From assembly GCF_004103735.1 (NCBI RefSeq), contig NZ_CP035281.1:806001-870000 (forward strand): a stretch of DNA of 64,000 nucleotides. The letters are read 5' to 3'. The stretch is from Aminipila luticellarii (GTDB lineage: Bacteria; Bacillota; Clostridia; Peptostreptococcales; Anaerovoracaceae). The position numbers were made by a program, and so were the translations under genes. How positions within the stretch are numbered: the stretch's first letter is position 1; every line of letters starts with the position of its first letter. Of the stretch, positions 20,628-39,692 are shown in pieces. The notes beneath the pieces are model-generated. The model did not search any database, was not told the DNA's origin, and saw only the letters and a list, made by a program, of their open reading frames with translations.

Positions 20628-21034
20628 GGCGTGCTTTTTATTTGTTATTTGTTAAGTAATTTGAAAAATAATACATAATGTCAAAATATGTCGAAAAATG
20701 GGAAAGAACAAAGCACAAAAGGTAGAAAAAGAGCAGTATACTTATAATAAAGAAGAATTTTAAAATAAATTCAGGATTTATCAAATAACTGAAATATAAA
20801 CATTGGTCGTGCTTTCGATGTTTATGGTTAGGGTTATAGCAATAATACGAAATTCAATTATCTGCAGAACTTGATAAATCTAAACGATAGCATTTCATTT
20901 ATAAGATGATTGTTGGTAAAAAACAGATTGTTGAGGGTGTTACGATTTAAAATATTAGAATTATTTATAATTTTGTAGAGGAACTAACTTGCGGAATAAC
21001 ATTAACAAGAATGCATTCTAATAAAGGAGTATTT
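20628..21034. other. Intergenic stretch between the IS and the first cargo gene
   Basis: About 400 AT-rich bases without a convincing gene. It begins with the right half of the split hairpin (to 20639) and contains a degenerate copy of the cargo intergenic motif (GCTTTCGATGTTTATGG near 20811-20827). This is where transposition genes would be expected in a Tn7-like element, and none is present. Confidence 0.6.
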
Positions 21035-23515: not shown

Positions 23516-23605
23516 CTTCACTGGGTGGTGTCAAGGTACACAGACTTTTTAAAATAAATCACTCGATGACATCGCAAGGAACAGTTTACATACTTTGTGT
23601 TAGTG

Positions 23606-23627
23606 AGCTTTCCATTATGTTTATGAT
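23606..23627 (+). repeat. Cargo intergenic motif, copy 1
   Basis: AGCTTTCCATTATGTTTATG continues to 23627. It is the first of four clear copies of the motif GAACTTCCCATTATGTTTAT(A/G)AT, each following a cargo gene. Confidence 0.6.
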
Positions 23628-23651
23628 GGACAAGACGATTGCTAGCAATAA

Positions 23652-23810
23652 TGGGTACTTTTGTTAATAGTAGGTCATTACAATAATCGGTTAGGCCTTT
23701 CAGATCAAAGTGTGGAGTGGGAAGTGTTGTACCGTATCCTTAATGAGTTGGAAACTTATAGAAGTAAGCGGAAACACGAGAAACCGGAATTTATAAAGTT
23801 GGAGAAATAG
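23652..23810 (+). other. Possible short ORF (about 50 aa) before the RloC-like gene
   Basis: A frame open from a TAA near 23650 to TAG 23808-23810 reads ...VGHYNNRLGLSDQSVEWE and ends in a charged tail. There is no clear start codon or ribosome binding site, and the RBS of the next gene lies in its end. It may be chance or the remnant of a larger gene. Confidence 0.2.
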
Positions 23811-23811
23811 T

Positions 23812-26196
23812 ATGTTTGAAAGTATTTATAAACTAAAGCTTAAAGGTGCAGCTTTTGCTGAGGAGACTATACTGCCGTTGTTTTCTGATTCCAAAGACCG
23901 GATTTCGTTGATTTATGGTAAAAATGGAACAGGTAAAAGTACCATATCAAAAGCGGTATTAAAGGCATCTGGTAGATTGATGGAAGAATTGTCAGAGGCA
24001 AGCTTGCTTGATGAACAAGGCCAAATTGTAGCCCTTCCTCAAAATCCTGATGAACAGAGAGTGTATGTTTTTAATGAGGATTATGTTCAGGAGAACATTC
24101 GCCTGAAAGAAGATGGCTTGCAAACAATCATTATGTTTGGCCAGCAGGTGGATTTAGATAATCAAATAACTGCAGCACAGGCTGAATTTGATGCGGCTGA
24201 AATTGCACGCCAGCAACAAGAAGAAAATTACAAGCAATACTCGGATTCGTCATTAGTAACAGCTCCTAGATATTACATAGCCAAAATGAATCTCGCATTA
24301 TCTGGAGACAACCACTGGGCTGGGCGTATAAGGGTGATTGACAGTTCGCGTAGGAGAAATGCGTCTGTAACCGATAATACATACGCTGAGGTTATCTTCA
24401 ATAAGCCGACCAAATCGTCTGAAGAACTACAGCAAGAGTTTAACGAAAAGCTTGCGATTTTACGAAAGGCAGAAGCTGGAACAGGGAAAATCACTACTCC
24501 CGTGAAGTCGGATTTAAAAATATCTCTAATAGAGGAAGATGCTATCACTCTTCTTGCTGGGCAGATCGAACATCCTGAATTGAATAAGAGAGAGGAATAT
24601 TTGATTTCTTTAATTGAAGACGGAAAAAGTAACTGGCTTAGTCAAATGGATACAGAATTTTCGAATGAAGAGACAGTGGCGTGCCCATTTTGCCTTCAAC
24701 CGATAGATGCAGAATACAGAGTTTCACTTTCTGATAGCATTAGAAAAGTATTGTCCAGAATAGTTGAAGAACATAAGGATGCCTTGAATAGACTGATTGT
24801 CAGTAAAATTGTAATTGATTTTCAGCCATATGTGGATTTGCATTCAGATGTATTAGAAGATTGTAAAGCAAAATTGCAACAGCTTAATGATACAATTGAA
24901 GGATTTAACGCCAGAATTCAAGAGAAGATTGATAAGCCTTTCACCCCGATAATTTTGAATTCAATTGATATACAAGAAAAAAGGAAAGTTCTTAATGGTG
25001 CACTGTTTGTTCTTGAACAGATTCGAACAAACTATAATAAGCCATTTGAAAGCACAGCATTATTGCGAAATGACTTGTTTAAGTTAAATGATAATATTGC
25101 ATACTATGAGATTCTTGATTTCTACAATTCGTTTATTAATCAAGATGCAAAAGCAAAAGAAGCAAAGGAAAAATGTGATGCTATGATCATTGCTTCACAA
25201 CAAAAGAAGACGGCATTGGATGCATTAAATGACCTGAAAAAGAGTGTTAGCATTGCACTCGAAATCATTAATTCTAGTCTGAGGTATGTATTCTTTGCAA
25301 ATGGCAGGTTGGAAGTACATTGTGAAGATGAGTGCTACAAATTGTATTCAAATGGATGTCAAGTGAAGCCAAGTGATGTATCAGTTGGTGAAAGAAATAT
25401 TCTTGCTCTTTGCTACTTCTTTACAGAGATACTCCGTCAGCAAGAAGAGAGAAAATCGTATTGTGAAGAAATGTTTCTATTGATAGATGATCCCATATCT
25501 AGCTTTGACCGCGAGAACAAAATCGGAATCATGTCTTTATTAAAAGCAAAACTCAACGCGATAATATGTGCGAATATCAATTCTAGGATTGTGCTGTTAA
25601 CCCATGACATCCAAGCCTTTTTTGATTTACAGAAAATTTGTGATGAAGTGAAGAACAATGCGAATAGAATTCATGGAAATAGGATTGGATCTTATAAACT
25701 TTGGGAATTACAACAGAAATCATTAGTTGATTTTAAGTACAAAAAAAGTAATGAATATTCAAGTATGCTTAATCAAGTATTTGTTTTTGGCTGTTCTGCA
25801 CCTATAGCTCAAGAAATGACTATTGGAAATACAATGCGAAGAGTATTGGAGACATATTCAACATTTTTCTATAAAAAGGGTATCGACGATGTGTCTTGTG
25901 ATGAAACGATACTAAGCGCATTATCAGATCAAAGCTACAAGAAATATTTTGAAAACCTTATGTATAGATTAGTGTTGAACGGTGAAAGCCACATGGAAGA
26001 AAGGGTGCGAGGCGGCTCTGATACTGATTTTGTGGAAATGCTTACCATGGCTGAAAAGAAAAAAACTGCAAGAGATATAGTTTCGTTTATATATCTTTTG
26101 AATCCTACACATGTCATGGCGCATCTTCAGGAGCATCCGGATGCTGAATTAACTATTAATAACTGGTGTGAAGATATTAAAGCATTGAACTTGTAA
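23812..26196 (+). CDS. RloC/PrrC-like ATPase with anticodon-nuclease motif
   Basis: A 794-aa ABC-type ATPase (AAA_13 family). Walker A YGKNGTGKST lies near residues 33-42, a signature-like VSVGERNILA near 523, Walker B MFLLIDDPISSFD near 555, and the H-loop VLLTHD near 595. Long coiled coils surround C291-P-F-C294, a zinc-hook-like CxxC as in RloC. The C-terminal region holds R676-xxx-E680 and H727 (NGESH), matching the Arg-Glu-His nuclease triad known from PrrC and RloC, which cut tRNA anticodon loops upon phage infection. No restriction-modification genes lie beside it; RloC, unlike PrrC, is not always linked to one. All motifs look intact, so it is probably active. Confidence 0.78.
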   Translation: MFESIYKLKLKGAAFAEETILPLFSDSKDRISLIYGKNGTGKSTISKAVLKASGRLMEELSEASLLDEQGQIVALPQNPDEQRVYVFNEDYVQENIRLKEDGLQTIIMFGQQVDLDNQITAAQAEFDAAEIARQQQEENYKQYSDSSLVTAPRYYIAKMNLALSGDNHWAGRIRVIDSSRRRNASVTDNTYAEVIFNKPTKSSEELQQEFNEKLAILRKAEAGTGKITTPVKSDLKISLIEEDAITLLAGQIEHPELNKREEYLISLIEDGKSNWLSQMDTEFSNEETVACPFCLQPIDAEYRVSLSDSIRKVLSRIVEEHKDALNRLIVSKIVIDFQPYVDLHSDVLEDCKAKLQQLNDTIEGFNARIQEKIDKPFTPIILNSIDIQEKRKVLNGALFVLEQIRTNYNKPFESTALLRNDLFKLNDNIAYYEILDFYNSFINQDAKAKEAKEKCDAMIIASQQKKTALDALNDLKKSVSIALEIINSSLRYVFFANGRLEVHCEDECYKLYSNGCQVKPSDVSVGERNILALCYFFTEILRQQEERKSYCEEMFLLIDDPISSFDRENKIGIMSLLKAKLNAIICANINSRIVLLTHDIQAFFDLQKICDEVKNNANRIHGNRIGSYKLWELQQKSLVDFKYKKSNEYSSMLNQVFVFGCSAPIAQEMTIGNTMRRVLETYSTFFYKKGIDDVSCDETILSALSDQSYKKYFENLMYRLVLNGESHMEERVRGGSDTDFVEMLTMAEKKKTARDIVSFIYLLNPTHVMAHLQEHPDAELTINNWCEDIKALNL

Positions 26197-26287
26197 AGTT
26201 GCAGACTATCGAGAAATTATTTCTACGAGATAGATTTAATGATTGGAAAAGCCCGCTAAATATCCGATTGACGGATTACGGTTTGCT

Positions 26288-26310
26288 GAACTTCCCATTA
26301 TGTTTAATTT
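26288..26310 (+). repeat. Cargo intergenic motif, copy 2
   Basis: GAACTTCCCATTATGTTTAA lies 92 bp after the RloC-like gene. A shorter inverted match (AGGAAGTTGAA) follows at about 26330-26340. Confidence 0.6.
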
Positions 26311-26415
26311 ATTATACATAAAATCCAGTAGGAAGTTGAAAATTTGCCTATTTAGCATAAAATTAACTTAAGCTAATAAACAAAATGATATTAATAATAA
26401 ATTGTGAGGTAAAAT

Positions 26416-26664
26416 ATGATTTGTCCGATTTGTGGAAAAGAAATGACTAAAGGCGGTATAATCCTTAGCGGGATAAAATTAGATGGGGAATTTACATGGT
26501 ATTCACAAAATGAGTTTGATAAAAAAGGGCTAAAAGCCTGGGACAGAAGTAATAGAAAAAACATAGATGCTAAGAGAAGCTTAATGGGTGAAGAAAAGTT
26601 TAATAATGCGTATTTCTGTGAATCCTGCAATAAAATTGTAGGTATATTTACTATTAATATATAG
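26416..26664 (+). CDS. Small zinc-ribbon protein (DUF6487-like)
   Basis: An 82-aa protein with an N-terminal CPICGK (C3/C6) and a C-terminal CESCNK (about 73-76) that would together bind one zinc ion, separated by a glycine- and tryptophan-containing core (GEFTWYSQN). The layout resembles the small PF20097-type zinc-ribbon family of unknown function. TTGTGAGGT precedes the ATG. It is separated from its neighbours by the repeated intergenic motif, so it seems to be an independent unit rather than part of an operon. No function can be given. Confidence 0.6.
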   Translation: MICPICGKEMTKGGIILSGIKLDGEFTWYSQNEFDKKGLKAWDRSNRKNIDAKRSLMGEEKFNNAYFCESCNKIVGIFTINI

Positions 26665-26782
26665 TATTGCAATCATTTAAAATTCTGCTGTCCAAATATG
26701 ACCAGTAAATTCGACTGCTCCTTTGAAAGTGAATGGTGTAAAGTTCTAATTATAGCTATGGCCTAGCGTAAAAGGTATTATC

Positions 26783-26806
26783 AAACTTCCCATTAGGTTT
26801 ATGATA
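26783..26806 (+). repeat. Cargo intergenic motif, copy 3
   Basis: AAACTTCCCATTAGGTTTAT, then GATAT, lies between the zinc-ribbon gene and the next gene, just upstream of that gene's probable promoter (TTATAATAAAT near 26816). Confidence 0.6.
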
Positions 26807-26841
26807 TATTAGACTTATAATAAATAGGAGTATACTAGTCG

Positions 26842-27438
26842 ATGTTAAAAATGATTAAAGGATGTAAAATATACGGATTAAATAAACTTCAGGAACATTA
26901 CGAAATAAATGGATTTACCATGAGGGCAAATGTAAATGCGGACAAAATTAGGGAAGTGATACAGCATTTTATATTTTCTCAAACTTCACTATTATTTTTT
27001 GTATTGGAGTTACCATCAAATGAAATTGATGAAAAGCGTCTTAGAAAATGTGATTATGATTCAATGCATAAGGATATTTATTATATTGATGGATTAAGTA
27101 AAGAAGAAATTCTTACTCTTATTACAAATTACGGTGATCTTCTTATTAATGATGGATTAAGCGGTTTTGGCTTTGGCTCGCATGATAATACAGCAGAAAT
27201 AATGGTCGATAAATATAATGTTGTTACCTTATGGACACATAACATGGAAAAATATGATGGCTTCTTTGAACAGCATAATATAAATAGAACTGATAAACTT
27301 GTTACGGCATGGGATACATTCAATGATGATACTCCAGGTGAAAGTTTTTGTTTTGAAGTTGATGGGAAGAATGTTTTTTGTCTTATTGATGAATTAAAGG
27401 ATTGGGGCATTTATTTTGCAAAGCAGAGAGAGGGATGA
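26842..27438 (+). CDS. Hypothetical protein, 198 aa
   Basis: I do not recognise this protein. It looks soluble, mixed alpha/beta and acidic, without signal peptide or membrane segment. A repeated aromatic/glycine stretch GLSGFGFGSHDNTAEIM lies near residues 106-122, and the C-terminal half is rich in W, F and D (TAWDTFNDDTPGESF). The ATG is preceded by a GGAGTATAC site 15 bp upstream. It stands alone between two copies of the cargo motif. Immunity-type proteins can have this size and look, but no partner toxin is visible, so I do not propose that. Confidence 0.6.
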   Translation: MLKMIKGCKIYGLNKLQEHYEINGFTMRANVNADKIREVIQHFIFSQTSLLFFVLELPSNEIDEKRLRKCDYDSMHKDIYYIDGLSKEEILTLITNYGDLLINDGLSGFGFGSHDNTAEIMVDKYNVVTLWTHNMEKYDGFFEQHNINRTDKLVTAWDTFNDDTPGESFCFEVDGKNVFCLIDELKDWGIYFAKQREG

Positions 27439-27460
27439 ATTTATCATATTTTTTTACATT

Positions 27461-27488
27461 CTGAACTTCCCATTATGTTTATAATAAT
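27461..27488 (+). repeat. Cargo intergenic motif, copy 4
   Basis: GAACTTCCCATTATGTTTAT, then AATAAT, starts 23 bp after the stop of the 198-aa gene. A weaker partial copy (TTAATGTTTATAATGAG) follows the next gene at about 30311-30327. Confidence 0.6.
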
Positions 27489-27562
27489 CAGCAAACTCTT
27501 AAAAGATTTCTATTCCTCAATTAACTATAAATACAAGAAACTACCCTATCGGAGGATACTAA

Positions 27563-30307
27563 GTGAACACAAGCAAACACTTGATTTTGAATAAAGGCAA
27601 GGATATTACACAAAATGTGAAGTTCTGTAAATATAATAAGGAGACACGAAAATATGATGTCACTTTTCAAAGTGGCAAGACCTATACATATGATTATCAT
27701 TCAATCGAATGGGTGAAGGATCCTGAGGTGTTGAGCCCAACCATGGTACATATCTCACATGGAAGCATAGAACTATTTAAAATACAGGAAATCTCCGTAT
27801 TCCACGCATCTGCGACGGATTACTGGCATATTCGTTTCTTTGATGAAAGCGAAAGAACGTATGAACGACAGGAACTAAAAATCGTGAATTCCTGCCTTAG
27901 TGAGAGTGAGGCCCAAGACTGCCTTAGATATCTAAGGCAATTGGCGTCCATAAATGAACTCAAAAGCGATGATGGAGAAATTCTACTGCAGAAGCAGTAT
28001 GAGAAGCTAGACTTTATTGGCGATGACACCACTATGGCACTCTATCTTAATCCAGACAAGCATAAGATTGATACCTATCAAAAGAGTAACCTCATATTCC
28101 CGTTTGGCGGTAATGCCAGTCAGTTCAAAGCGGTTCAAAATGCGCTGAATAATCAGGTTAGTGTAATCCAAGGTCCACCCGGTACCGGCAAGACGCAGAC
28201 AATACTAAACATCAGCGCAAATCTGCTGGTGGATGAGAAAAATGTACAAATAGTTTCCAACAACAATTCTGCTACGGCTAACGTATTGGAAAAACTGGCC
28301 TCACCCAAATACAACATGGGGTTTATCGTGGCACAGTTAGGAAACTCAGGAAACAAAAAAGAATTTATTAAGAACCAGCTAGGGTACTATCCGGATCTCT
28401 GTAGCTGGGAGATGGAAATCGGCAAGCAGGCAGAGCTACGCGAGAAAATCAAAAACCACACAAAAGAATTGGCTAGTACGTTTGCCAAGCAAGAGCGTCT
28501 TGCACAGGTGCAGTTGGAGCAGGATGCATTGCTCTTGGAAATCAAGTATTTTGAACAGTATTGCAGTGATTCTAACCATATTTTTTCAAATATAAAACCT
28601 CGTCGGAGTCTAAAGTCGCAAAAAATTATGCAGCTCTGGCAGGAGTGCTACGAGTTCTCAGAGGGTGACCGTGACGTTTCGTTTTGGTTTAAAATCAAGA
28701 GTCTCTTTGTCTACGGTATCTCAGATTGGAACTTTTATAAGAACAGTCTAACGATAATTATTACGCTTTTGCAGAATTTATTCTATCAGGCGCGACAGCG
28801 GGAATTAACTAATGAACTTTCCGCACTGAAAAAGCATTTAGAAGCCGTTGATGTTAAAGGGAAAATGGAAGAACTCACAGAATGGTCTATGGATTATCTG
28901 CGTGCAAAATTGTTTGAGCGATATGGGAACAAGCAAGAGCGTGTGCTGTTCACAGAAGAAGACTTGTGGAAACGAGCCAGAGATGTGGTCAAAGAATATC
29001 CCATCGTCCTCAGCACTACATTTTCGTCCCGTAGTAGTTTAAAGGGCATCACATATGATTACCTTATAATGGACGAAGCTTCACAAGTAGACGTGGCTAC
29101 CGGTGCGCTGGCGCTTTCATGCGCTAGAAACGCAGTTATTGTTGGGGATTTAAAACAACTTCCAAACGTAGTCAAAGACAATATGAAGAAACAATGCGAT
29201 GCAATTTTTAATTCTTATAAGCTATCTCAAGCTTATTCCTTCTCAGAAAATAGTTTCCTGAAATCTGTGTGCAGCATTCTGTCTGAGGTACCGCAGACTC
29301 TACTGAGAGAGCATTATCGTTGTCATCCAAAGATTATAGGCTTCTGCAACCAGAAATTTTATAATAATGAGCTGATTGTTATGACGGAGGATCATGGTGA
29401 ATCAGATACATTGGCGGTCTTTAAAACGGTGGTCGGAAATCATCGTCGCGATCATACTAATCAACGCCAAATCGATGTAACAATCCAGGAAGCACTACCT
29501 CTGTTAGAAAACGTGAAACCGGAGAATATTGGAATTGTTGCGCCATATAAGGATCAGGTGGCTACGATTGTCAAGCAACTGAACACAGATAAAATTGAAG
29601 TACATACCGTGCATAAGTTTCAAGGACGTGAAAAGGATACAATTGTATTGACCACTGTCGATGATATAGTTACAGATTTTTCCGATGATCCATATCTCTT
29701 GAATGTGGCTGTTTCACGTGCCAAGAACAGGCTATGCCTTGTGGTATCGGGTAATGAGCAGCCAGTCGATAGTAACATCGGGGATTTAATTTCGTACATA
29801 GAATATAACAATTTTCATGTAGTTCAGAGTGAAATCTATTCGGTTTTTGACTTGCTCTATCAACAATATACAGACGCGAGAATTGCTTTTTTGAAAAAAC
29901 ATTTGAGGGTATCTGAATATGATTCAGAAAAAATTATGTATGGCACAATTGTGGACATTCTAAATAGCCACTCAAACCTTTCACTAAACGTTATTTGTCA
30001 TCAACCAATCAATATGCTAATCCATAACCCGAAGAGGCTGAATGATGAAGAGTGTCGTTACGCAATGAATATGGCCACTCATGTAGATTTTCTGATTTAT
30101 AACAGAATCAGTAAAAAGCCTGTCCTTGGAATAGAAGTGGATGGGTTCCACAATCACAAGGATGGGACTCGGCAAAGTGAGCGTGATAAGATGAAAAACC
30201 ATATATTTGAACTTTATAACATTCCTTTATTGCGTTTCCCTACTAACGGAAGTGGAGAAAGGGAAAAAATCGAGCAATTCCTAACTGAGTATGCAAACAA
30301 TAAATAA
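27563..30307 (+). CDS. SF1 (AAA_11/AAA_12) helicase with C-terminal DUF2726-like nuclease domain
   Basis: A 914-aa protein starting at GTG 27563 after GGAGGA. The N-terminal 150 residues have no clear assignment. Helicase motifs follow in order: IQGPPGTGKTQT (about 202-213), MDEASQVD (about 503), VGDLKQLP, LREHYRCHP, APYKDQ, HKFQGREKDTIV and NVAVSRAKNR, the Upf1/Dna2-like SF1 set. A helical insertion lies near 290-420. The C-terminal part (about 770-914) contains LGIEVDGFHNHKDGTRQSERDKMK, with spaced E, D and H residues as in the Vsr-like DUF2726 nuclease fold. Single-gene helicase-nuclease proteins of this kind occur in defence islands. DNA or RNA cleavage is inferred. Confidence 0.78.
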   Translation: MNTSKHLILNKGKDITQNVKFCKYNKETRKYDVTFQSGKTYTYDYHSIEWVKDPEVLSPTMVHISHGSIELFKIQEISVFHASATDYWHIRFFDESERTYERQELKIVNSCLSESEAQDCLRYLRQLASINELKSDDGEILLQKQYEKLDFIGDDTTMALYLNPDKHKIDTYQKSNLIFPFGGNASQFKAVQNALNNQVSVIQGPPGTGKTQTILNISANLLVDEKNVQIVSNNNSATANVLEKLASPKYNMGFIVAQLGNSGNKKEFIKNQLGYYPDLCSWEMEIGKQAELREKIKNHTKELASTFAKQERLAQVQLEQDALLLEIKYFEQYCSDSNHIFSNIKPRRSLKSQKIMQLWQECYEFSEGDRDVSFWFKIKSLFVYGISDWNFYKNSLTIIITLLQNLFYQARQRELTNELSALKKHLEAVDVKGKMEELTEWSMDYLRAKLFERYGNKQERVLFTEEDLWKRARDVVKEYPIVLSTTFSSRSSLKGITYDYLIMDEASQVDVATGALALSCARNAVIVGDLKQLPNVVKDNMKKQCDAIFNSYKLSQAYSFSENSFLKSVCSILSEVPQTLLREHYRCHPKIIGFCNQKFYNNELIVMTEDHGESDTLAVFKTVVGNHRRDHTNQRQIDVTIQEALPLLENVKPENIGIVAPYKDQVATIVKQLNTDKIEVHTVHKFQGREKDTIVLTTVDDIVTDFSDDPYLLNVAVSRAKNRLCLVVSGNEQPVDSNIGDLISYIEYNNFHVVQSEIYSVFDLLYQQYTDARIAFLKKHLRVSEYDSEKIMYGTIVDILNSHSNLSLNVICHQPINMLIHNPKRLNDEECRYAMNMATHVDFLIYNRISKKPVLGIEVDGFHNHKDGTRQSERDKMKNHIFELYNIPLLRFPTNGSGEREKIEQFLTEYANNK

Positions 30308-30474
30308 GATTTAATGTTTATAATGAGAATGAAATATATTAGTAAACTATTATTCTAAGTCTCAATAAATACCTGTTGGAAAACTTAATTTTCTTGTGAA
30401 TACTGACATTGAATCAGTATATGTTTTGACACATACAAAATATAAGACTTCGGCACTAGTAAGGAGGATACGAA

Positions 30475-33400
30475 TTGCGCAATATTAATGAATTAATCGG
30501 AATAATAAAAGGCATAAATTTTGATGGTATTATTAACGAAAAGGAAGTGGTGCGGCTTCAATCCTGGGTTGATAAGAATCGTAACCTTGCATATGAAGTT
30601 CAGCAGGTGGAGCTAATTAAATTAGTGGATGAAGTGTTGGAAGACAGTTTTATCACTGATGAGGAGCGAGATTTGATGCTCCGCTCTTCTGAACGATTTC
30701 TTAAGAAAACCATGGATAATTCCACAAGAATTTATGAACTTAATGGAATTATAGAGGGCATTATTTGTGATGGAGAAGTTAATGAACAAGAAGTGTACCG
30801 TTTAAAAGCTTGGATGGATGCCTATGGTAATTGTATTAAAGGGTACAAATCAAGTGAATCACTCTGCAATATTATAAAAGCTATTTTAGCTGATGGAATT
30901 GTAACAAAGGCAGAACAAGAGCAGTTGCTGCAAATGTTGTCAGTAAAAATAAGTAGTTCTCAATTTGAAACCAAGCTAGAATACTTGCGAAAACTAGTAA
31001 AATCTCGAAATAATATAGGTATTGATTTAATAGATATTCTGGATAATAAAGGTGCAATGGATGAAATACATAGACTTGCAGAAGCACAGCTAAAAAATAC
31101 ATTAAATTCTTATACAGTAAGCTTCGTTAGTGATAGTGAAATTGTATTTATATCCCTAGTTCTAATTGCAATGTTGAAATACGATGGCAATTATTATGAT
31201 AATGTACAGACAACTTATACAACGCTATATCGTTTGTATCCTGAACAGAAGATTGAAGGTCTTATTAGAACCATATTAAATCGATACAGAACAGGCGAAG
31301 AAACAAGAACCAGCAGATCACGTATTATTAATGTGGTTTTAGCTAATGCAATTGTACCAAGTCATTTTCTTACACCATTTTTTGAATTTATATATGATAT
31401 CTATAAGCTTAATTTTGAATATGCATTAGTGGAAGATTTATATGGAGAATTTAAGTTTGTATATGAAGGGCTACAATCTCATATGTTGTCAGATGGAGAT
31501 GATATACAATTAAACGTTACCAAGAAGACGTACAAGCTGATTAGATCAACCAAAAGATTGATTGCAAATGATAGGGATATGGAATCAGCCATCAGGCTAA
31601 GTATGATTATTGTAAGGCTGATAGATAAGAAAATCTGGAATAAGGAAATAAAAATTAATAACCCATATTTGAAGGCAGGATATGAGGGATGGCTTGCAAC
31701 ATTGAAGGCTGATATCTCTGACAAAAAACACGGCAGGATGCTTTCTGATATTCACTCTCGTTGGGAGCCCAAATATCTGTTGAATAATAATGAAATACAT
31801 ATTGTGCCACCAATTCATAAGGTAAAAGCTGAATACAACTATCGTGATATCAAGGTCGTTGTACTGAATGGAAAAAAAGAAATTTATGTAAATGCTGAAC
31901 CTGATATACGAGAAATTATTGGAGGATATCAGATTAGCATTAGCCAAATTAATATTGAAGAACCACTCGGAAGGATATCATATAAACTAATGGCTGGCAA
32001 AGATGTTATTTATGATAGCAAAGATAAACTATATCGAAATGTGATTGTTTTTGATACGAATGGAAATGAAATTCAAAATAATAGTGATTATTCAGGAACA
32101 TCAGTATTTTGCTATAAAAATGAACATAAGAAGCTAAAAGCTTTTTATAATTGCAGCTATTACAAACTAGCATCACAAAATGTAAGATTAGGTTCTGCAT
32201 ATGTAATTGAGGATACAATTTTTAACTTTTCATCATTGATTAAACCAGGCATATTTGGGGAGGAATATTCAAATCATTATCTTGTAGAAGTGAAGTCAGA
32301 AAAAAAGATACTTGTTTATAAGCATGTAAAGTTCCTTGTGTTTGAAAGTGAAAATACATCATTATCTTTTGAAATTGTACTTGACGGAAAATCGTATGGA
32401 CTGAGTAAATTTAATTACACAATTACAGAAAGAGAAGGTGTTAATAAATATGTTGTCGATCTAGAAATTAATGAGTCAGGAATACATTCTATTTGTGTGT
32501 ATCAGTTGGCAAATGGAAAGAAAGTAAAACTATGGTTATTTGATTTTGCTTTAGATAAAGCATTAGAAGTTGATGAACTAAAATTGGATGACGAAAGATA
32601 TATGGTTAGTGTTAAAACTGATATGTGTGCTGCTGTCATTAATGCAGAAATCAATGTGAGTGACTTTTCAGAGGATCTTATAAAAATTGAATGTAATCAA
32701 GGCGAATATATATATTGTATTCCGTTTAATTTTGAAATATATAGGATAGAAGGCTCAAGTTGGAAACCAATGAATCAAGCACTATGGATTGGTGATATTA
32801 CACAGGAAAGTATTTTTAATATCTATGGTACAGAAGTTAATAAACTACAGGTATATGCTAGTACAGGAGAACCTTTAGATGAAGTAATAAAGTTAAAAAG
32901 TAAAGGTGTATATCAACAAGTGCCGATTGGATTTATTATGTCATATAAATCTTCTTATGATTATATTCGTCTAATATTTTTGCTTGATGGTATAGAAAAG
33001 AAGGAGATACTCTGCTATAACCGTTGTATTTTGGATGAGAGTGAAACGGATATTATTTTTGACTCTGTTAATAAGATACTAGATGTTTCAACAAGCTATT
33101 ATGGGCAAGGTCAGGTGTTTTTCTCAATGTACAATACTTTAGGAGAGCAGGTTTATAAGAGTGATATTATTGAAAACGGAAGGACTGAACGTATAGTTGG
33201 ATTAAGGTCCTTCGAGAAGTATAGTATATGTTTTTATGAAAAGGTTAAAGGTATTTCACTTAAAAAAGATCGTCTGATGCAGCAGTATGAAAAAGTCTTC
33301 TATGCATGGGAGGATTTCATAGGTCACTCCTTCAAAATTAGGGAAGTATATTTTGATCAATTTGTCAAAGGCAAATTTTTACGTAGGAACCATTATTTCA

Positions 33401-33681
33401 ACACAACTTATGTAAGATTCATAAGTAAGAAAGATGAAGATTTATATATGGGAGATGTGTTTGTAAAGACCGGTAAAGGAAAGTATTTGCTATATTGCAT
33501 AAATCCTGTATCAATAGAGATATGTAGCGAAGTACTTGATGAGACAATAGAGTTATCTATGACAAAAGATGGCGATGGCTTATTTTTAGATTTTGAGAAA
33601 CATGAAATAAAAAATACCTTGTATGATGACTCTGCGACGGATATTTTTTCTTACATAATTGATATGAATGAGGTGGAGTAG
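30475..33681 (+). CDS. Large TerB-like-repeat protein of the two-gene helicase operon (DruH-like by position)
   Basis: A 1068-aa protein starting at TTG 30475 after AAGGAGG. The first 160 residues are two copies of an about 80-residue repeat with motifs GIIKGINFDGIINEKEV and GIIEGIICDGEVNEQEV, each followed by a second acidic helix pair (TDEERDLM, TKAEQEQLL). These look like TerB or EF-hand-like units. A helical region extends to about 460, and the remaining 600 residues are beta-rich, like repeated beta-sandwich domains. No catalytic motif is visible. It ends 1 bp before the TTG start of a giant helicase, so the two act together. Druantia type III has the same layout of an uncharacterised protein of about 1000 aa (DruH) plus DruE; homology to DruH itself is untested. 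Confidence 0.6.
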   Translation: MRNINELIGIIKGINFDGIINEKEVVRLQSWVDKNRNLAYEVQQVELIKLVDEVLEDSFITDEERDLMLRSSERFLKKTMDNSTRIYELNGIIEGIICDGEVNEQEVYRLKAWMDAYGNCIKGYKSSESLCNIIKAILADGIVTKAEQEQLLQMLSVKISSSQFETKLEYLRKLVKSRNNIGIDLIDILDNKGAMDEIHRLAEAQLKNTLNSYTVSFVSDSEIVFISLVLIAMLKYDGNYYDNVQTTYTTLYRLYPEQKIEGLIRTILNRYRTGEETRTSRSRIINVVLANAIVPSHFLTPFFEFIYDIYKLNFEYALVEDLYGEFKFVYEGLQSHMLSDGDDIQLNVTKKTYKLIRSTKRLIANDRDMESAIRLSMIIVRLIDKKIWNKEIKINNPYLKAGYEGWLATLKADISDKKHGRMLSDIHSRWEPKYLLNNNEIHIVPPIHKVKAEYNYRDIKVVVLNGKKEIYVNAEPDIREIIGGYQISISQINIEEPLGRISYKLMAGKDVIYDSKDKLYRNVIVFDTNGNEIQNNSDYSGTSVFCYKNEHKKLKAFYNCSYYKLASQNVRLGSAYVIEDTIFNFSSLIKPGIFGEEYSNHYLVEVKSEKKILVYKHVKFLVFESENTSLSFEIVLDGKSYGLSKFNYTITEREGVNKYVVDLEINESGIHSICVYQLANGKKVKLWLFDFALDKALEVDELKLDDERYMVSVKTDMCAAVINAEINVSDFSEDLIKIECNQGEYIYCIPFNFEIYRIEGSSWKPMNQALWIGDITQESIFNIYGTEVNKLQVYASTGEPLDEVIKLKSKGVYQQVPIGFIMSYKSSYDYIRLIFLLDGIEKKEILCYNRCILDESETDIIFDSVNKILDVSTSYYGQGQVFFSMYNTLGEQVYKSDIIENGRTERIVGLRSFEKYSICFYEKVKGISLKKDRLMQQYEKVFYAWEDFIGHSFKIREVYFDQFVKGKFLRRNHYFNTTYVRFISKKDEDLYMGDVFVKTGKGKYLLYCINPVSIEICSEVLDETIELSMTKDGDGLFLDFEKHEIKNTLYDDSATDIFSYIIDMNEVE

Positions 33682-33682
33682 A

Positions 33683-36600
33683 TTGCGCAAATTAAATTCG
33701 ATTGAAAGATCAAAATATATAAACGATAGATATAAAGATTATCTGAGGTCTTCCTTCAAATTTGGAAATGGGAAACTGCAGAAACTTTTTGAAGATCGGC
33801 TGAACAGTGAGGTACTGTTCAAAGGTCCATATGTAGATTTAAATCTTCCATTTCAGAGAGGGCATTGCCTCAATGAGCTTATGGATGAGGGAGTGGTTTG
33901 TAAGTCTTTTTCTAAGTTAGGTGATATCAATTTTGAGAGATCCCTGTATTCACATCAGGAAGAGTCAATCCGCAGGATTGGTGCAGGTAGAAGTGCAATT
34001 ATTACCACCGGTACAGGATCAGGAAAAACAGAAAGTTTTCTTTATCCCATTCTAAATGAACTGATGAGTGACATAGAACAAGGAAATAGAGAGGTTGGGA
34101 TTCGAGCAATTTTTTTATATCCAATGAATGCATTGGTAAATGATCAAATTGATCGTGTTAGGAAAATATTAACTCAGTGCCCAGACATTACATATGGATT
34201 CTTTACAGGTGACACGAAAGAATCTGTTGCAAAGAATTATAGGGTAAAGTATGGTGAAGAAAATGATACTTTTATCCCAGACAATGAACTTGTATCCAGA
34301 GAGGAAATAAGGGAGAATCCTCCACATCTTTTATTTACGAACTATTCTATGCTGGAATATTTACTTATCAGGCCAAATGATTATGCAATATTTGAACCAA
34401 ACATATTGAACAATTGGAAATATGTTGTTTTGGACGAAGCCCATTCTTATTATGGATCATTGGGAATAGAGCTTTCTTTATTAATGCGAAGATTGACAGG
34501 TCTGGCTGAAAAGAAACCAAGATTTATACTTACCAGTGCTACATTAGGAGAACAGGGGAAGTCTGAAAAAGAAATTGTGGATTTTGCAAGAAGTCTTACC
34601 TCAGCTACTTTTGAGGTTGAAGATATTATTTTTTCAAAGAGAATTCTACTACAAGCATCAAGCATTCAATATAGGGTTGATGGTACTGATTATTTGCAAA
34701 TAAAAGATAATATCGATAATTTGGATACAGTAAACCAGCTTTGCACGAAGTATTTAAAGATTCCTGTAACAGATATTCGAACCTGCTTATATGAACTTCT
34801 TGCTAGAGATGGAAATGTTTTCAGAATTTATAATTTCTTAAAGAATGAAAGTAAAAATTTTAATGAGATACATAAGGAAGTTGGTGACACTTTGTCAACA
34901 GAGCAACTTATTGTACTTATTGACTTAATTAATCTGGCCGAAAAGAATGGTATTGGATTATTTGATTTAAAATACCACTCTTTTGTTAGGCCACTATCAG
35001 GGGCGTATATAACATTAGGAAATGAACAACGATTAGGTCTTACAAAAACAAATATGATCGAGGGGTTAAAAGCATTTGAAGTTGGTAATTGCAGGTATTG
35101 TAGTTCACCATATATTATTGGAAAAATTCAGCATAATGAAGTGGATCAGCTTGATTATTTGTTCCAAAATAAAGAAATTGATATTTACGAGAACTATGGA
35201 AATAATGAATTTGTAAAATTAGATTATTTCCTCATGGAAAATGCTGTAAACGAGGAGAAAACAGATAAGTCAATTTTAAAAGAATTTACAGTTTGCTCAA
35301 AATGCGGTGCAATTCATCCAGCTGGCAACTTAAATGCAAAAAAATGTGGATGTGGTGATGAATTCAAATTTATTATTTATAGAGTAGTTCAATCCAAGGA
35401 TGATGAAGGTGAAACAGTATTTAATAATATTAACCAGTGCCCATGTTGTGGACATAAAGGACAGTCAGGTGTAGTTAAGAGTCTGAACCTTGGTAAAGAT
35501 GAAGGAACCTCTTTAATTGCACAGATTTTGTTAGAAGCTATTGACGAGGGAGAATTAGAGATAAAACAACCTGGAAAACTGTCTTTGAAAATGAATACTA
35601 AAAAGGAAACTGTAACAAAAAATGCAAAAGTAAAGCAATTCTTATCTTTTTCAGATAGCAGACAGCAGGCAAGTTTTGCAGCAGCCTTTTTGGATTCGAA
35701 TCAGGTAAGACTGCTGCAAAAACGCTTGATATGGGAAATTATTGAAGAACAAAATTATAGAGATATTCCAATTGATGAGCTAGCGGCTTTTTTGACATCA
35801 ATAATTAAAACAAAAGATTTGTTCCCAAATGATTTGACTACACATAAGAATGCCTGGATTGCGCTACTTATAGATTTACTTCGTATTGATGGTGCATATG
35901 ATGGAGAAGGTTTGGGATTATATTATTTTGATCTGGACCTCTCGGATATTATGGACAACATTGATGAAGAAGATGTAGAGGAAGCTTTTGGAAAGTATAA
36001 TATCAATAAAACTGAGTTAGAAACAATTATTCAGGTAGTGTTTGGTGTTTTTAAACTAACACCGGCGATTAACTATGTAAAATCTACTTTGACTCCAGAC
36101 GAAAAAATGGAGTATTTGGAATATAGAAGATTTGACAATTATGTCATGTTTAATAGCCCTAAGGCGATTAAGAATACTAGAAGTTTTTTGCCGGTAAACG
36201 GCAAAGAGAATATGGTTGTGAGATATATAGAACGAGTTTGCGCTTGTGATGATACAGAAGCTAAAGATGTTTTGAATATTATCTTCAATAATTTGGCAGT
36301 GGAAAGTGGTCTGCTGAAGAAACACGATACCAAGGATGCATATCAGATAGATGTTAGTCAGTATTGTATAAAGAATTATAGAAGATCCAAGTATTATCAG
36401 TGTTCAAAGTGTGGACGGTTAACGCCTTATAATGTACATAATGTATGTGTTCAGGACAAGTGTGATGGCAATTTGAGTGAAGTGGATCCTGATGTAGCTT
36501 TTGCAACGAATTATTATAGGGAACAGTATAAACATAAAAAAATTGAAAGTATTGTAGTTAAAGAACATACTGCACAATTAGATAGAAAAACAGCAAAGAA

Positions 36601-38362
36601 ATATCAGTTAGATTTTAAGAATAAAAAAATCAATATTTTAAGTTGTTCTACTACTTTTGAAATGGGTATCGATATTGGTGATTTGGAAACAGTATTCATG
36701 CGAAATGTACCGCCTACACCAGCCAACTATGTACAGAGAGCAGGTCGTGCTGGAAGGCGTAAAGAGAGTGCTGCATATATACTCACTTATTGTGGCACTG
36801 GTTCACATGATTTTACATATTTTATGGCACCAGAGAAAATGATATCAGGAGTTATAAATCCTCCGTATTTTAATGTGTTGAACAAGAAAATTATTGTACG
36901 TCATTTGATGACAACTTGTTTAGGATTCTTCTTTAGGCAGAACCCAAGTTATTTTAACACAATTAATGGTCTTGTTTTTGGTGACGGAGTTGAACGATTT
37001 AAGGAGTATGTAGCAAATCATCCTGAGGACTTGAATTGCTATATTAATGAAAAAATTTTACCTGAAAGTGTCTATGCAGAATATCATAATTTCAAGTGGT
37101 TTGATGAAATGAATGGAAATGATGAGAAGATGGAACATTTTGTCGAAAGTATAAGAGATATAGCAAAAGAATATGAGGAAGCAAAGAAACACGCCTTAAC
37201 AGAAGAGAAATACCAAGAAGCAGATTATTATGCAAGACAGATTGAAAAGCTTCATAAAGAAAAAGTGATTGATTCATTATCAAAATACTGCGTTATTCCT
37301 AAGTATGGATTCCCAGTTGATGTCGTTGAGTTACAAATTTACAAAGAAGGTGTTTTAGATAATAGATATGATTTGAATCGTGATTTGAAGATTGGATTAT
37401 CGGAGTATGCACCTGATTCGGAAGTTATTGTAGATGGGAAAAAATATACATCGAAATATATTTCCTTACCAAAAGCATCACAGTTTCCGCGCCATTATTT
37501 TTGTACTTGTCCTAATTGCAAGAAAATTAATGTTTATGTTAGTACACGAACAGCTAGCAAATGCAAGTACTGTGGAGAATCAATTGTAGCAGAGCGGTCA
37601 GAGTTTTTTATTGAACCAATCAACGGTTTTAAAACTGGTGTTACAAAAGAAAGTACACGTATGAAGCCAAAACGTTCTTATGCAGGAGAGGTATCGTATC
37701 TTGGTGGTGGCATTAAGGATGAGAATCGCCTTGAAATTGGAAAAGCGTTCACGATAGAAACTAGTACAGATGATGAACTTCTTGTTATGAATAAATCTGG
37801 GTTTTATATGTGTCCAATATGCGGCTACAGTGATATTATGAAGAGAAAAGTTATTACACCTGAATTATTAAAGAAGCATAAGAATTTTAGACAGTTTGAT
37901 TGTCAGAATGAAAATTTAGAACAGCTAAAGCTTGGTCATAGATTCCAGACGGATGTAGCACGATTTACGATTCCACTTCTAGATTCAATAGATGTGACAA
38001 GCTATTCTAGGGCGTTGTCATTTATGTACGCTTTTCTGGAAGGTGTAAGCAATGCTCTTGGCATAGAAAGAAATGATATTGATGGTATTTTGGAATTAAA
38101 CCTGGAAGAACATAGTTATGATATTCTATTATATGACAATGTGCCAGGTGGTGCAGGGCATGTAAAGCGACTTATGAATAAAGCTGCAATTATCAATTCA
38201 CTTCGTTCAGCGCATAATAAGGTCTCGCAGCAGTGCTGTGATGAAAATACATCCTGCTATAATTGTTTGAGAAATTATTATAACCAGGCGCATCATAGCA
38301 GACTTCGAAGAATTTATGCAAAAGAAGTTATTGAAAAAATATTATGTGAAATAGGCGTATGA
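33683..38362 (+). CDS. Giant DEAH-box SF2 helicase with DUF1998/MZB-type C-terminus (DruE-like)
   Basis: A 1559-aa helicase. Walker A is TTGTGSGKTES (about 107-117), motif II LDEAHS (about 250), motif III TSATLG, then a long insertion with several zinc-binding pairs (CRYC, CSKC, CGCG, CPCC). The second RecA domain is marked by FSDSRQQASF, TFEMGIDIGDLE and QRAGRAGRR (about 1017). The C-terminal third has more CxxC pairs (CPNC, CKYC, CPIC) and YDNVPGGAGH ... CYNCLRNYYNQ, the DUF1998/MrfA zinc-binding type. This is the hallmark of the Druantia DruE and DISARM DrmA helicase group; no methylase or PLD gene supports DISARM. I start at TTG 33683, with AGGTGGAG just upstream. Confidence 0.8.
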   Translation: MRKLNSIERSKYINDRYKDYLRSSFKFGNGKLQKLFEDRLNSEVLFKGPYVDLNLPFQRGHCLNELMDEGVVCKSFSKLGDINFERSLYSHQEESIRRIGAGRSAIITTGTGSGKTESFLYPILNELMSDIEQGNREVGIRAIFLYPMNALVNDQIDRVRKILTQCPDITYGFFTGDTKESVAKNYRVKYGEENDTFIPDNELVSREEIRENPPHLLFTNYSMLEYLLIRPNDYAIFEPNILNNWKYVVLDEAHSYYGSLGIELSLLMRRLTGLAEKKPRFILTSATLGEQGKSEKEIVDFARSLTSATFEVEDIIFSKRILLQASSIQYRVDGTDYLQIKDNIDNLDTVNQLCTKYLKIPVTDIRTCLYELLARDGNVFRIYNFLKNESKNFNEIHKEVGDTLSTEQLIVLIDLINLAEKNGIGLFDLKYHSFVRPLSGAYITLGNEQRLGLTKTNMIEGLKAFEVGNCRYCSSPYIIGKIQHNEVDQLDYLFQNKEIDIYENYGNNEFVKLDYFLMENAVNEEKTDKSILKEFTVCSKCGAIHPAGNLNAKKCGCGDEFKFIIYRVVQSKDDEGETVFNNINQCPCCGHKGQSGVVKSLNLGKDEGTSLIAQILLEAIDEGELEIKQPGKLSLKMNTKKETVTKNAKVKQFLSFSDSRQQASFAAAFLDSNQVRLLQKRLIWEIIEEQNYRDIPIDELAAFLTSIIKTKDLFPNDLTTHKNAWIALLIDLLRIDGAYDGEGLGLYYFDLDLSDIMDNIDEEDVEEAFGKYNINKTELETIIQVVFGVFKLTPAINYVKSTLTPDEKMEYLEYRRFDNYVMFNSPKAIKNTRSFLPVNGKENMVVRYIERVCACDDTEAKDVLNIIFNNLAVESGLLKKHDTKDAYQIDVSQYCIKNYRRSKYYQCSKCGRLTPYNVHNVCVQDKCDGNLSEVDPDVAFATNYYREQYKHKKIESIVVKEHTAQLDRKTAKKYQLDFKNKKINILSCSTTFEMGIDIGDLETVFMRNVPPTPANYVQRAGRAGRRKESAAYILTYCGTGSHDFTYFMAPEKMISGVINPPYFNVLNKKIIVRHLMTTCLGFFFRQNPSYFNTINGLVFGDGVERFKEYVANHPEDLNCYINEKILPESVYAEYHNFKWFDEMNGNDEKMEHFVESIRDIAKEYEEAKKHALTEEKYQEADYYARQIEKLHKEKVIDSLSKYCVIPKYGFPVDVVELQIYKEGVLDNRYDLNRDLKIGLSEYAPDSEVIVDGKKYTSKYISLPKASQFPRHYFCTCPNCKKINVYVSTRTASKCKYCGESIVAERSEFFIEPINGFKTGVTKESTRMKPKRSYAGEVSYLGGGIKDENRLEIGKAFTIETSTDDELLVMNKSGFYMCPICGYSDIMKRKVITPELLKKHKNFRQFDCQNENLEQLKLGHRFQTDVARFTIPLLDSIDVTSYSRALSFMYAFLEGVSNALGIERNDIDGILELNLEEHSYDILLYDNVPGGAGHVKRLMNKAAIINSLRSAHNKVSQQCCDENTSCYNCLRNYYNQAHHSRLRRIYAKEVIEKILCEIGV

Positions 38363-38578
38363 GTTTTAGAATATGATAGTATCTCCTTTTTATCAGAGGG
38401 TATGATTAAACAAATTACGAAAATCTTAATAAAAATTGTATTGCAAAATATTAAAAAAATGATATTTTATAATAAAATTTAACATTTTCGAGAAAAAATG
38501 AACACGAACCGGAAAGTTTGCAGATTCTATTTAAAAAAATTGAATAGTGATACATTTTTAAAAATTAAAATATAAGAA

Positions 38579-38614
38579 AAATAAGGACATCTAGATGTCC
38601 TTATTTCGTTTTTT
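38579..38614 (+). terminator. Terminator of the helicase operon
   Basis: AAATAAGGACATCT and AGATGTCCTTATTT form a perfect 14-bp inverted repeat, followed by CGTTTTTTGG. It lies about 215 bp after the helicase stop; the intervening AT-rich DNA shows no gene. Confidence 0.75.
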
Positions 38615-38666
38615 GGACATAACAAAAAAATTATTATATAATATAAAATTTTAAAATGCTTAATCA

Positions 38667-38814
38667 ATTGGTCCAAACTTATTTTCCTAAAAATTAGGAA
38701 AATATTGGGTGAAAATAATATTTAGTCCAAACTTATTTTCCTAAAAATAAAAAATTGAATATAAGTTTAATACTTCTGTGATATGTTTAGTCCAAACTTA
38801 CTTTCCCACTGTCA
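38667..38814 (-). repeat. Spread (left-type) transposon end: terminus plus three transposase-site repeats
   Basis: Inverted copies of the site, AGTCCAAACTTATTTTCC-type, begin near 38668, 38722 and 38786. The last merges with the terminus ...CCCACTGTCA ending at 38814. Three sites spread over about 150 bp match the Tn7 left end. Confidence 0.83.
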
Positions 38815-38819
38815 TTTAT
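38815..38819. repeat. Target-site duplication TTTAT, far side
   Basis: This is the second copy of TTTAT, directly after the terminus, identical to 18582-18586 beside spoIVA. Confidence 0.85.
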
Positions 38820-38835
38820 TGTGAATAGGTAAATG

Positions 38836-38884
38836 AAAACCTTCAGACAGATGTAAGAAATTACTTCGTTTGGAGGTTTTATTA
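38836..38884 (+). terminator. Displaced original terminator of spoIVA
   Basis: AAAACCTTCAGAC pairs with GTTTGGAGGTTTT (13 bp with two G-U pairs) around an inner GTAA-GAAA-TTAC hairpin, followed by a T-rich tract. It begins 17 bp after the far duplication. With the element removed it would lie about 20 bp after the spoIVA stop, exactly where its terminator should be. Confidence 0.7.
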
Positions 38885-38885
38885 T

Positions 38886-39093
38886 GGCCGGCTGATGACA
38901 ATTATCACTACTAAGTAGGAACAGTTTAAAATATTAAATTTTAATTTGTGAAAAATTCGACATATTATAACAATCGCTTATGATATACTGTGTATGCAAA
39001 GTTATGCAGTATTTGCTTTTTAAAAAGCTGTCTAGTTTATTTAGCCGATTCATCCGTTATTGTAAAAAATAAATTCTGTAAAGGAGACAAAGT
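38886..39093. other. Intergenic region upstream of the small secreted protein gene
   Basis: No gene is seen. TATGATATACT near 38979-38989 could include a -10 element (TATACT), but no convincing -35 accompanies it. Confidence 0.4.
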
Positions 39094-39279
39094 GTGAAAA
39101 AAAGAATTTTAGGTTTGTTTTTAGTTGTTATAATGATAATGGGAAACAGCTCAATGGTTTTTGCCGGAGTTATTGAAGAATCTACACCTATTAATAATGT
39201 AAATGGTACTAGTACAGTTTTAACAACAGACAATACGACTTTAAATGTGGACACAGAATATAAACTGCTTGATTACTAG
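39094..39279 (+). CDS. Small secreted protein (61 aa)
   Basis: This small protein starts at GTG 39094 after AAGGAGA. Residues 1-24 form a standard Sec signal peptide: KKR, then GLFLVVIMIMG, then a cleavage region MVFAG. The mature part is about 37 residues of polar, Thr/Asn-rich sequence without cysteines, ending YKLLDY. I do not recognise it. It stands 17 bp before a small membrane protein gene with its own strong RBS, so the two are likely coexpressed. A peptide signal or cell-surface role is possible but has no direct support. Confidence 0.6.
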   Translation: MKKRILGLFLVVIMIMGNSSMVFAGVIEESTPINNVNGTSTVLTTDNTTLNVDTEYKLLDY

Positions 39280-39293
39280 GAGGATAAAGCACC

Positions 39294-39494
39294 ATGAAAC
39301 ACACAAAAGTATTAGGGTACACATTAATTGGGTTAAGCATTTTTATTACGTTATTATTCCTATTTAATACTAATTTAATACGCTCTGAATCGTATATTCT
39401 TGCAGTAGATGGATATATAATTTCAAAAAATCTTATAACTATTTTTTTACTTTTTAGCCTTTCACAACTAGGCTATCATCTGTTAAAAAAATAG
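39294..39494 (+). CDS. Small membrane protein (66 aa)
   Basis: It has two hydrophobic segments (about 8-26, VLGYTLIGLSIFITLLFLF, and about 45-62, NLITIFLLFSLSQLGYHLL) joined by a short polar loop, so it is a double-spanning membrane protein. AGGAGGATAAAGCACC precedes the ATG. It probably forms an operon with the preceding secreted peptide and is followed by a strong terminator. No family is recognised. Confidence 0.6.
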   Translation: MKHTKVLGYTLIGLSIFITLLFLFNTNLIRSESYILAVDGYIISKNLITIFLLFSLSQLGYHLLKK

Positions 39495-39549
39495 ATGACA
39501 ATAGGCCTGAATCGGCTACAATAAATTAATACTATATATCAACCTATTT

Positions 39550-39589
39550 ACTCTTGAGAAATTGCAGTTTTCTCAAGAGTATTTTTATA
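39550..39589 (+). terminator. Terminator after the two small genes
   Basis: ACTCTTGAGAAA and TTTCTCAAGAGT form a 12-bp perfect stem with a short loop, followed by ATTTTTATAA. Confidence 0.85.
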
Positions 39590-39692
39590 ATACCTAAAAT
39601 ACATAAAAAAAAATTGAAATATAATATATAATATTTGCTGTTATAATGATATGTAAAGTTGTAATTTTCTATACTGAAAGGATGTGGCTCTA

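What the first reader, a model, noticed from the sequence alone, without database searches (positions are those of the whole stretch)
30475..38362. Two-gene operon of giant proteins resembling Druantia type III, with a TerB-like-repeat partner
A 1068-aa protein of unknown function is followed after 1 bp by a 1559-aa DEAH helicase with several zinc motifs and a DUF1998/MZB-type end. Type III Druantia is DruH plus DruE with this layout. Both genes use TTG starts with nearly identical context (TTGCGCAA). The first protein has two tandem TerB/EF-hand-like repeats and a beta-rich body, which may indicate a divergent subtype or a different helicase-based system.
Basis: partly seen in the sequence, partly recalled or inferred. 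Interest (0 to 1): 0.72.

Follow-up and report, generated by a model that had tools for sequence, protein, structure and literature searches.

The report
Druantia-like two-gene phage-defence operon
This is a pair of adjoining genes in a Clostridia-type bacterium, a DruE-type DNA helicase and a large partner protein that standard defence-gene profiles do not recognise; it belongs to a widespread but little-annotated branch of the anti-phage system Druantia, and here the partner carries an unusual extra helical module at its front end.

Summary
In detail: 1068-aa gene 30475-33681, then after 1 bp a 1559-aa DEAH helicase (TTG 33683-38362). The helicase is DruE by profile (PADLOC DruE1 3.5e-184, DruE3 1.7e-162, Pfam MZB), ends just after MZB and has no fused nuclease. 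The partner hits no PADLOC or Pfam model, DruH profiles included. It nevertheless belongs to one DruE-partner superfamily: 100 of 130 related DruE loci have a large co-directional ORF just upstream, 86 of them joined within 40 nt. Profile-profile comparison links the window's partner to these, to mycobacterial partners, and (only through merged profiles of other members) to E. coli-type DruH. The helicase lies outside the clade whose partner is DruH and fits the 'Druantia III-like / III-B' branch of PMC12458937. A mycobacterial pair of similar layout is antiphage (PMC13316683); I infer that it is of this branch. So the layout is type III, but not canonical DruH-DruE. The TerB-like front end is a lineage-specific add-on: intact in four of seven close homologues, halved or frame-split in two, absent in one; it is shared with DnaQ-exonuclease/BRCT proteins, and the name TerB is weakly supported. 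Neighbours are defence genes. Verdict: new variant of a known kind.

The parts
30461..30467 (+). ribosome-binding site (aaggagg) of the partner gene
   Evidence: sequence
30475..33681 (+). partner gene (DruH position; 1068 aa; no model in PADLOC or Pfam)
   Evidence: relatives
30475..30966 (+). N-terminal helical module of four DG..I..E helix pairs (TerB-like), shared with DnaQ-exonuclease/BRCT proteins
30967..31713 (+). conserved helical region of the partner core (aa 165-413)
   Evidence: AlphaFold; conservation
31762..33663 (+). array of Ig/fibronectin-III-like beta sandwiches (aa 430-1063), about 600-920 the most diverged part
33496..33660 (+). strongly conserved C-terminal segment (aa 1008-1062, NPVxIE...TKDGDG...DIFSY), candidate DruE contact (inference)
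33670..33676 (+). ribosome-binding site (gaggtgg) of the helicase gene inside the end of the partner gene
   Evidence: sequence
33683..38362 (+). DruE-family (YprA-like) DEAH helicase, 1559 aa from TTG (1564 aa from ATG 33668)
33950..34552 (+). DEAD/DEAH RecA1 domain
   Evidence: Pfam PF00270
36533..36760 (+). helicase C-terminal (RecA2) motifs
   Evidence: Pfam PF00271
38024..38269 (+). MZB / DUF1998 zinc domain; no nuclease domain follows
   Evidence: Pfam PF09369
27563..30307 (+). adjacent SF1 helicase with C-terminal DUF2726 nuclease-like domain (neighbouring defence gene, 167 bp upstream; possible trans nuclease, not shown)
   Evidence: relative beside the DruE of L073

Best explanation
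A two-gene antiphage system of the Druantia III-like (III-B) branch. Shown here: an adjoining, probably translationally coupled pair of a nuclease-less DruE helicase and a DruE-partner superfamily protein made of a helical scaffold and a long Ig/FN3-like array, with a lineage-specific helical module in front. Inferred: the partner is the infection sensor and regulator, its diverging beta-sandwich array and front module binding a phage product or an altered host complex. Once triggered it licenses or recruits DruE, which loads on 3' single-stranded ends of replicating phage DNA and translocates with its zinc-rich canopy, blocking circularisation or replication. DNA breakage, if any, comes from the partner itself or a separate nuclease, not from DruE.
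For: DruE profiles 3.5e-184 (DruE1) and 1.7e-162 (DruE3), far above DrmA, DpdJ and Cas3; best PDB match is the 2108-aa helicase 9tu7 at 1.4e-77 versus YprA 6znp at 3e-19. 100 of 130 related DruE loci carry a large upstream co-directional ORF, 86 joined within 40 nt. HHalign: window family to Clostridial partners 100% (2e-43); those to the 1300-1660-aa partners 100% (4e-42); these to mycobacterial partners 99.9-100%; merged profiles of other groups to DruH 95% (2e-8) against 0.1% for reversed DruH. In one search the partner body was found in only two other class genomes, G222 and G035, both beside DruE. Partner dN is 1.6-2.2 times DruE dN in all six comparisons, as expected of a sensor; greater divergence of DruH than DruE is also reported (PMC13192584). 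Window neighbours 21011-30307 are defence-type genes in a low-GC island; relatives' neighbours include type I R-M and NERD-helicase genes. M. smegmatis DruH-DruE (1132 and 1667 aa, overlapping, no canonical nuclease) lowers plating more than 10^4-fold and needs both proteins to interact (PMC13316683); DruE of type III unwinds 3'-tailed DNA (PMC13192584).
Against: No functional data on this locus or any Clostridial member. The direct window-family-to-actinobacterial profile match is weak (0.2%, 5.9%); the link holds through intermediates (m6 98.4%, m4-m5 99.9%). The DruH link is weak when Clostridial profiles are used alone (2% or less). M. smegmatis MSMEG_1253 itself was not in hand; the mycobacterial relatives used are other species, and its reported R410/E651 were not recovered as conserved positions. 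The PADLOC scan of neighbours had no random-gene control. Sensor role, trigger and output are inferred.
Confidence: 0.62

Rival explanations
1. Canonical Druantia type III whose DruH has simply diverged beyond profile detection; the partner is DruH and works as in E. coli.
For: Same two-gene order, similar partner length, Ig-like beta array as reported for DruH (PMC13192584), merged-profile match to DruH 95% over about 410 columns.
Against: None of 81 partners scanned in two sets, nor two further mycobacterial ones, hit a PADLOC DruH profile at E 1e-3. DruH-associated DruEs form one separate clade with 100% support. No PLD nuclease pair at the DruE C-terminus. The Clostridial profiles alone reach DruH with at most 2% probability, and Ig-fold similarity can be generic.
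Confidence: 0.2
2. A DNA-repair helicase (MrfA/YprA type) with an accessory protein, not defence.
For: YprA-family helicase with MZB; front module shared with DnaQ-exonuclease/BRCT proteins.
Against: DruE profiles win by hundreds of bits; no MrfB-like neighbour; patchy presence (15 of 391 class genomes, 37 of 398 phylum genomes), none in the seven other same-family genomes listed; defence neighbours.
Confidence: 0.05
3. A larger nuclease-coupled system in which the DruE pair works with the adjacent SF1-DUF2726 helicase 27563-30307 (or, in relatives, a NERD-helicase) as trans nuclease.
For: The SF1-DUF2726 gene is co-directional, 167 bp upstream, with no terminator-like site on the + strand between them; a relative lies beside the DruE of L073; seven distinct loci have a NERD-nuclease/helicase within 12 nt of, or overlapping, the DruE end.
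Against: The SF1 gene is close to DruE in only 2 of about 130 loci; NERD genes are absent in the window; the mycobacterial pair reported works as two genes (PMC13316683).
Confidence: 0.12

Closest known systems
Druantia type III-like / III-B branch (PMC12458937)
   Same: YprA-like DruE with DEAH, zinc modules and MZB; phylogenetically apart from type III; most often no C-terminal nuclease
   Different: the front helical module on the partner, and this Clostridial partner, are not mentioned in the text read; the branch's representative sequence could not be placed in the tree
M. smegmatis DruH-DruE, MSMEG_1253-1254 (PMC13316683)
   Same: two overlapping genes, partner of about 1,130 aa, DruE without canonical nuclease; shown antiphage, interaction needed
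   Different: sequence similarity to the window's partner is shown only through intermediates and other mycobacterial relatives; no TerB-like module reported
Druantia type III of E. coli (DruH-DruE; PDB 9tud, 9tu7; PMC13192584)
   Same: gene order, DruE helicase core, Ig-like partner proposed as sensor
   Different: partner not recognised by DruH profiles; DruE lacks the two PLD domains; separate helicase clade
Druantia types I, II and IV
   Same: share DruE
   Different: DruA-D, DruM/F/G and DruL not found among the neighbours
DnaQ-exonuclease / BRCT proteins with the same helical repeats (L004-L009)
   Same: front 150 aa 27-34% identical
   Different: no DruE-partner body; role unknown, probably unrelated to Druantia

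Membership tests
Druantia (any type): DruE | YprA-family SF2 helicase matching DruE profiles, with MZB/DUF1998 | tested here: met
Druantia type III (canonical) | DruH partner recognised by DruH profiles | tested here: not met
   no hit for the window protein or for other partners scanned; E. coli and Marinobacter DruH controls hit strongly
Druantia type III (canonical) | two-gene order partner-DruE, adjoining | tested here: met
Druantia type III (canonical) | two C-terminal PLD-like domains on DruE | tested here: not met
   protein ends 30 aa after MZB; no PLD hit
Druantia type III (canonical) | helicase in the DruH-associated clade | tested here: not met
   seven DruH-linked DruEs form one side of a branch, support 100; window elsewhere
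Druantia III-like / III-B branch | DruE outside the III clade, usually without nuclease | tested here: met
Druantia III-like / III-B branch | groups with representative GIH50614.1 | not testable with these tools
   sequence not held; actinobacterial relatives such as L165 and L181 are the nearest stand-ins
Druantia type I / II / IV | DruABCD, or DruMFG, or DruF+DruL next to DruE | tested here: not met
   none among neighbours 18836-41027
MrfA/YprA repair helicase | best match MrfA/YprA, MrfB or no conserved context | tested here: not met
   DruE over YprA by far; conserved partner
TerB domain (Pfam PF05099) | match above the curated cut-off or confident fold match | tested here: inconclusive
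   17.1 bits versus cut-off 24.4; no confident Foldseek hit
Druantia (function) | protects against phage | not testable with these tools
   needs a plaque assay

The most novel reading that the evidence does not exclude
The DruE partners outside canonical type III form one rapidly diverging sensor superfamily, a distant cousin of DruH, in which a conserved scaffold and Ig/FN3-like array carry exchangeable front modules (TerB-like here; some other partners match coiled-coil, PglW or RNA-polymerase alpha-CTD models). It would be the main, largely unannotated form of two-gene Druantia in Bacillota and Actinomycetota, with the TerB-like module giving a separate input shared with exonuclease/BRCT proteins.
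Probability: 0.4. Interest if true: 0.58.

Novelty: new variant of a known kind. Interest (0 to 1): 0.45.

Why it matters
Annotation tools see a lone DruE in such genomes because the partner has no profile. Recognising the partner family would turn many orphan DruE calls into complete two-gene systems, link the mycobacterial and E. coli 'DruH' work through one superfamily, and make the sensor question testable by exchanging arrays and front modules between related pairs in laboratory hosts.

Tried and rejected
Viral contigs and plasmids gave no relative of the partner. L013 was a chance hit. PDB sequence searches with the partner, or with its family profile, gave nothing meaningful. Foldseek with the partner model returned only generic Ig/FN3 ectodomains and phage FN3 proteins with low TM; DruH 9tud was not among the top 50, and it is unknown whether that library holds it, so this neither supports nor excludes DruH. 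The TTGCGCAA start similarity was rejected as coincidence. Placing M. smegmatis DruH by its published residues R410/E651 failed; that genome was not recognisably among those drawn. PADLOC model C3a139 matches the partner of G636/L089 strongly and L100 weakly, but not the window's. The alpha-CTD hits could not be pinned to positions. No Rfam families or tRNAs in the window.

Full report
What is there. The window is G000:C1:806001-870000 of a 2.75-Mb genome. Two co-directional genes lie at 30475-33681 (1068 aa, TTG, aaggagg upstream) and 33683-38362 (1559 aa, TTG, 1 bp after the first stop; an ATG at 33668 would give 1564 aa). The island 18-40 kb has GC 0.29-0.41 against about 0.45 on the left flank and 0.35-0.44 on the right. 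It holds an IS3 element, an HD-CE/Hsp90-ATPase protein, an AAA_13 (PDC-S06/PrrC-like) ATPase and an SF1 helicase with DUF2726, then the pair.

The helicase. PADLOC gives DruE1 613 bits, DruE3 541, DruE2 379, DruE4 330, then a fall to about 107 bits for the next family. Walker A, DEAH, TSAT, QRAGRAGR and eight CxxC pairs are intact; MZB is at 1453-1534 (ATG numbering) and the protein ends 30 residues later. The best solved relative by sequence is the 2108-aa helicase 9tu7, of nearly the same length as E. coli DruE. In a tree of 122 DruE proteins the window sits with six Clostridia/Bacilli MAG sequences (52-82% identical, support 100), and the seven DruEs whose partner is DruH (STY4851/ECs_5259 family; E. 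coli, Marinobacter, Azotobacter, Pseudomonas, Sinorhizobium, Rhizobium, Methylocystis) form one other side of a branch with support 100 (FastTree, midpoint root for drawing only, some long branches). [quoted passage not shown] this fits, though its representative could not be placed.

The partner. It has no match in PADLOC or Pfam, and only one NCBIfam hit far below cut-off. DruE relatives were found in 15 of 391 class and 37 of 398 phylum genomes and in 80 further loci of named species. Of 130 loci, 100 have an upstream same-strand ORF of 600 aa or more next to DruE, 58 overlapping by 1-40 nt and 28 with a gap of 0-40 nt; many of the rest are cut by contig ends. In a first set of 46 partners, phmmer single linkage at 1e-10 joins all but two. 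Profile-profile: window family to Clostridial ~940-aa partners 100% (2e-43), those to 1300-1660-aa partners 100% (4e-42), these to mycobacterial/actinobacterial partners 99.9-100%. A direct window-to-actinobacterial match is weak and becomes 97-98% with merged profiles.

Is it DruH? Two sets of partners (39 and 43 rows, both including the window) and three mycobacterial proteins gave no PADLOC DruH hit, while genuine DruHs from E. coli and Marinobacter score up to 2511 bits. Merged profiles of the other groups do align with DruH at about 371-821 at 94-95% with a reversed-DruH control at 0.1%; profiles dominated by the window's own relatives do not (2% or less). So distant homology to DruH, over the Ig-like part, is likely for the superfamily but not shown for this protein directly.

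Architecture. AlphaFold (18 sequences, mean pLDDT 79, pTM 0.43) gives helices to residue 413 and beta strands 433-1063; Foldseek finds only tandem Ig/FN3 ectodomains, which says fold class and no more. Conservation is highest at 201-360 and 1001-1040 and lowest around 600-920 within the core. The first 164 residues are four repeated helix pairs, found again at 27-34% identity between a DnaQ-type exonuclease and a BRCT domain, or before a BRCT alone, in other genomes of the class. Among the seven close homologues two repeats are intact in four (window, L119, L120, L122), one repeat remains in L121, L123 has them split between two frames, and L124 lacks them. No other partner examined has them. 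Hence it is an add-on of this lineage. TerB identity is inconclusive.

Mechanism. Reported for related systems: E. coli DruE loads on 3'-tailed DNA and DruH is the likely sensor (PMC13192584); the M. smegmatis pair blocks phage DNA circularisation and replication and needs the two proteins to interact (PMC13316683). Inferred here: the window's partner senses infection through its diverging array and front module and licenses a nuclease-less DruE that remodels or blocks phage DNA. In agreement, the partner's dN is 1.6-2.2 times that of DruE against every one of six relatives, with dS saturated.

Neighbourhood. In 75 neighbouring genes of related loci PADLOC at 1e-30 finds type I restriction-modification, MADS and NERD-helicase families (no random control). 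Seven distinct loci carry a NERD-nuclease/helicase within 12 nt of, or overlapping, the DruE end, a possible third component not present in the window.

Verdict. Observation confirmed; interpretation partly supported. New variant of a known kind: the DruE branch is described, and a probably related pair is tested in M. smegmatis, but the Clostridial partner with its front module is not in any library used here and not in the papers read.

Noticed in passing
L121:8201-9913, L126:15119-16828, L064:156-1880, L079:12333-14111, L063:8739-10508, L144:10455-12302, L071:1906-3516: NERD-nuclease/SF1-helicase gene (PADLOC RTasNERD-Hel) directly downstream of DruE, gap 1-12 nt or overlapping, in several III-like loci; L121 is a close relative of the window pair.
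   Followed up: partly
window 27563-30307 and L073:466-3214: SF1 helicase with DUF2726 end lies beside the DruE pair in the window (upstream) and, split in two ORFs, in L073 (downstream).
   Followed up: partly
window 21011-26196: HD-CE plus Hsp90-type ATPase protein and AAA_13/PDC-S06 ATPase: further candidate defence genes in the same low-GC island.
   Followed up: no
window 18836-20553, minus strand: IS3-family transposase (two overlapping frames) at the left edge of the island.
   Followed up: no
L123:145-504: The two helical repeats of the partner's front module lie in different reading frames here; real disruption or assembly error not decided.
   Followed up: no
L089:5129-9010 (G636), L100:3-3884 (G570): PADLOC model C3a139, described as HKD+Snf2, matches these DruE partners (1e-174, 1e-23) although Pfam finds no helicase or PLD domain in them.
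   Followed up: partly
L110, L111, L188, L190: Cyanobacterial DruE-like helicases of about 2100 aa follow two ORFs (about 300 aa and about 790-970 aa; three ORFs in L110) instead of one large partner.
   Followed up: no
window 38362-39684: 1.3 kb without a gene, low GC (0.29), with terminator-like hairpins at 38579 and 39549.
   Followed up: no
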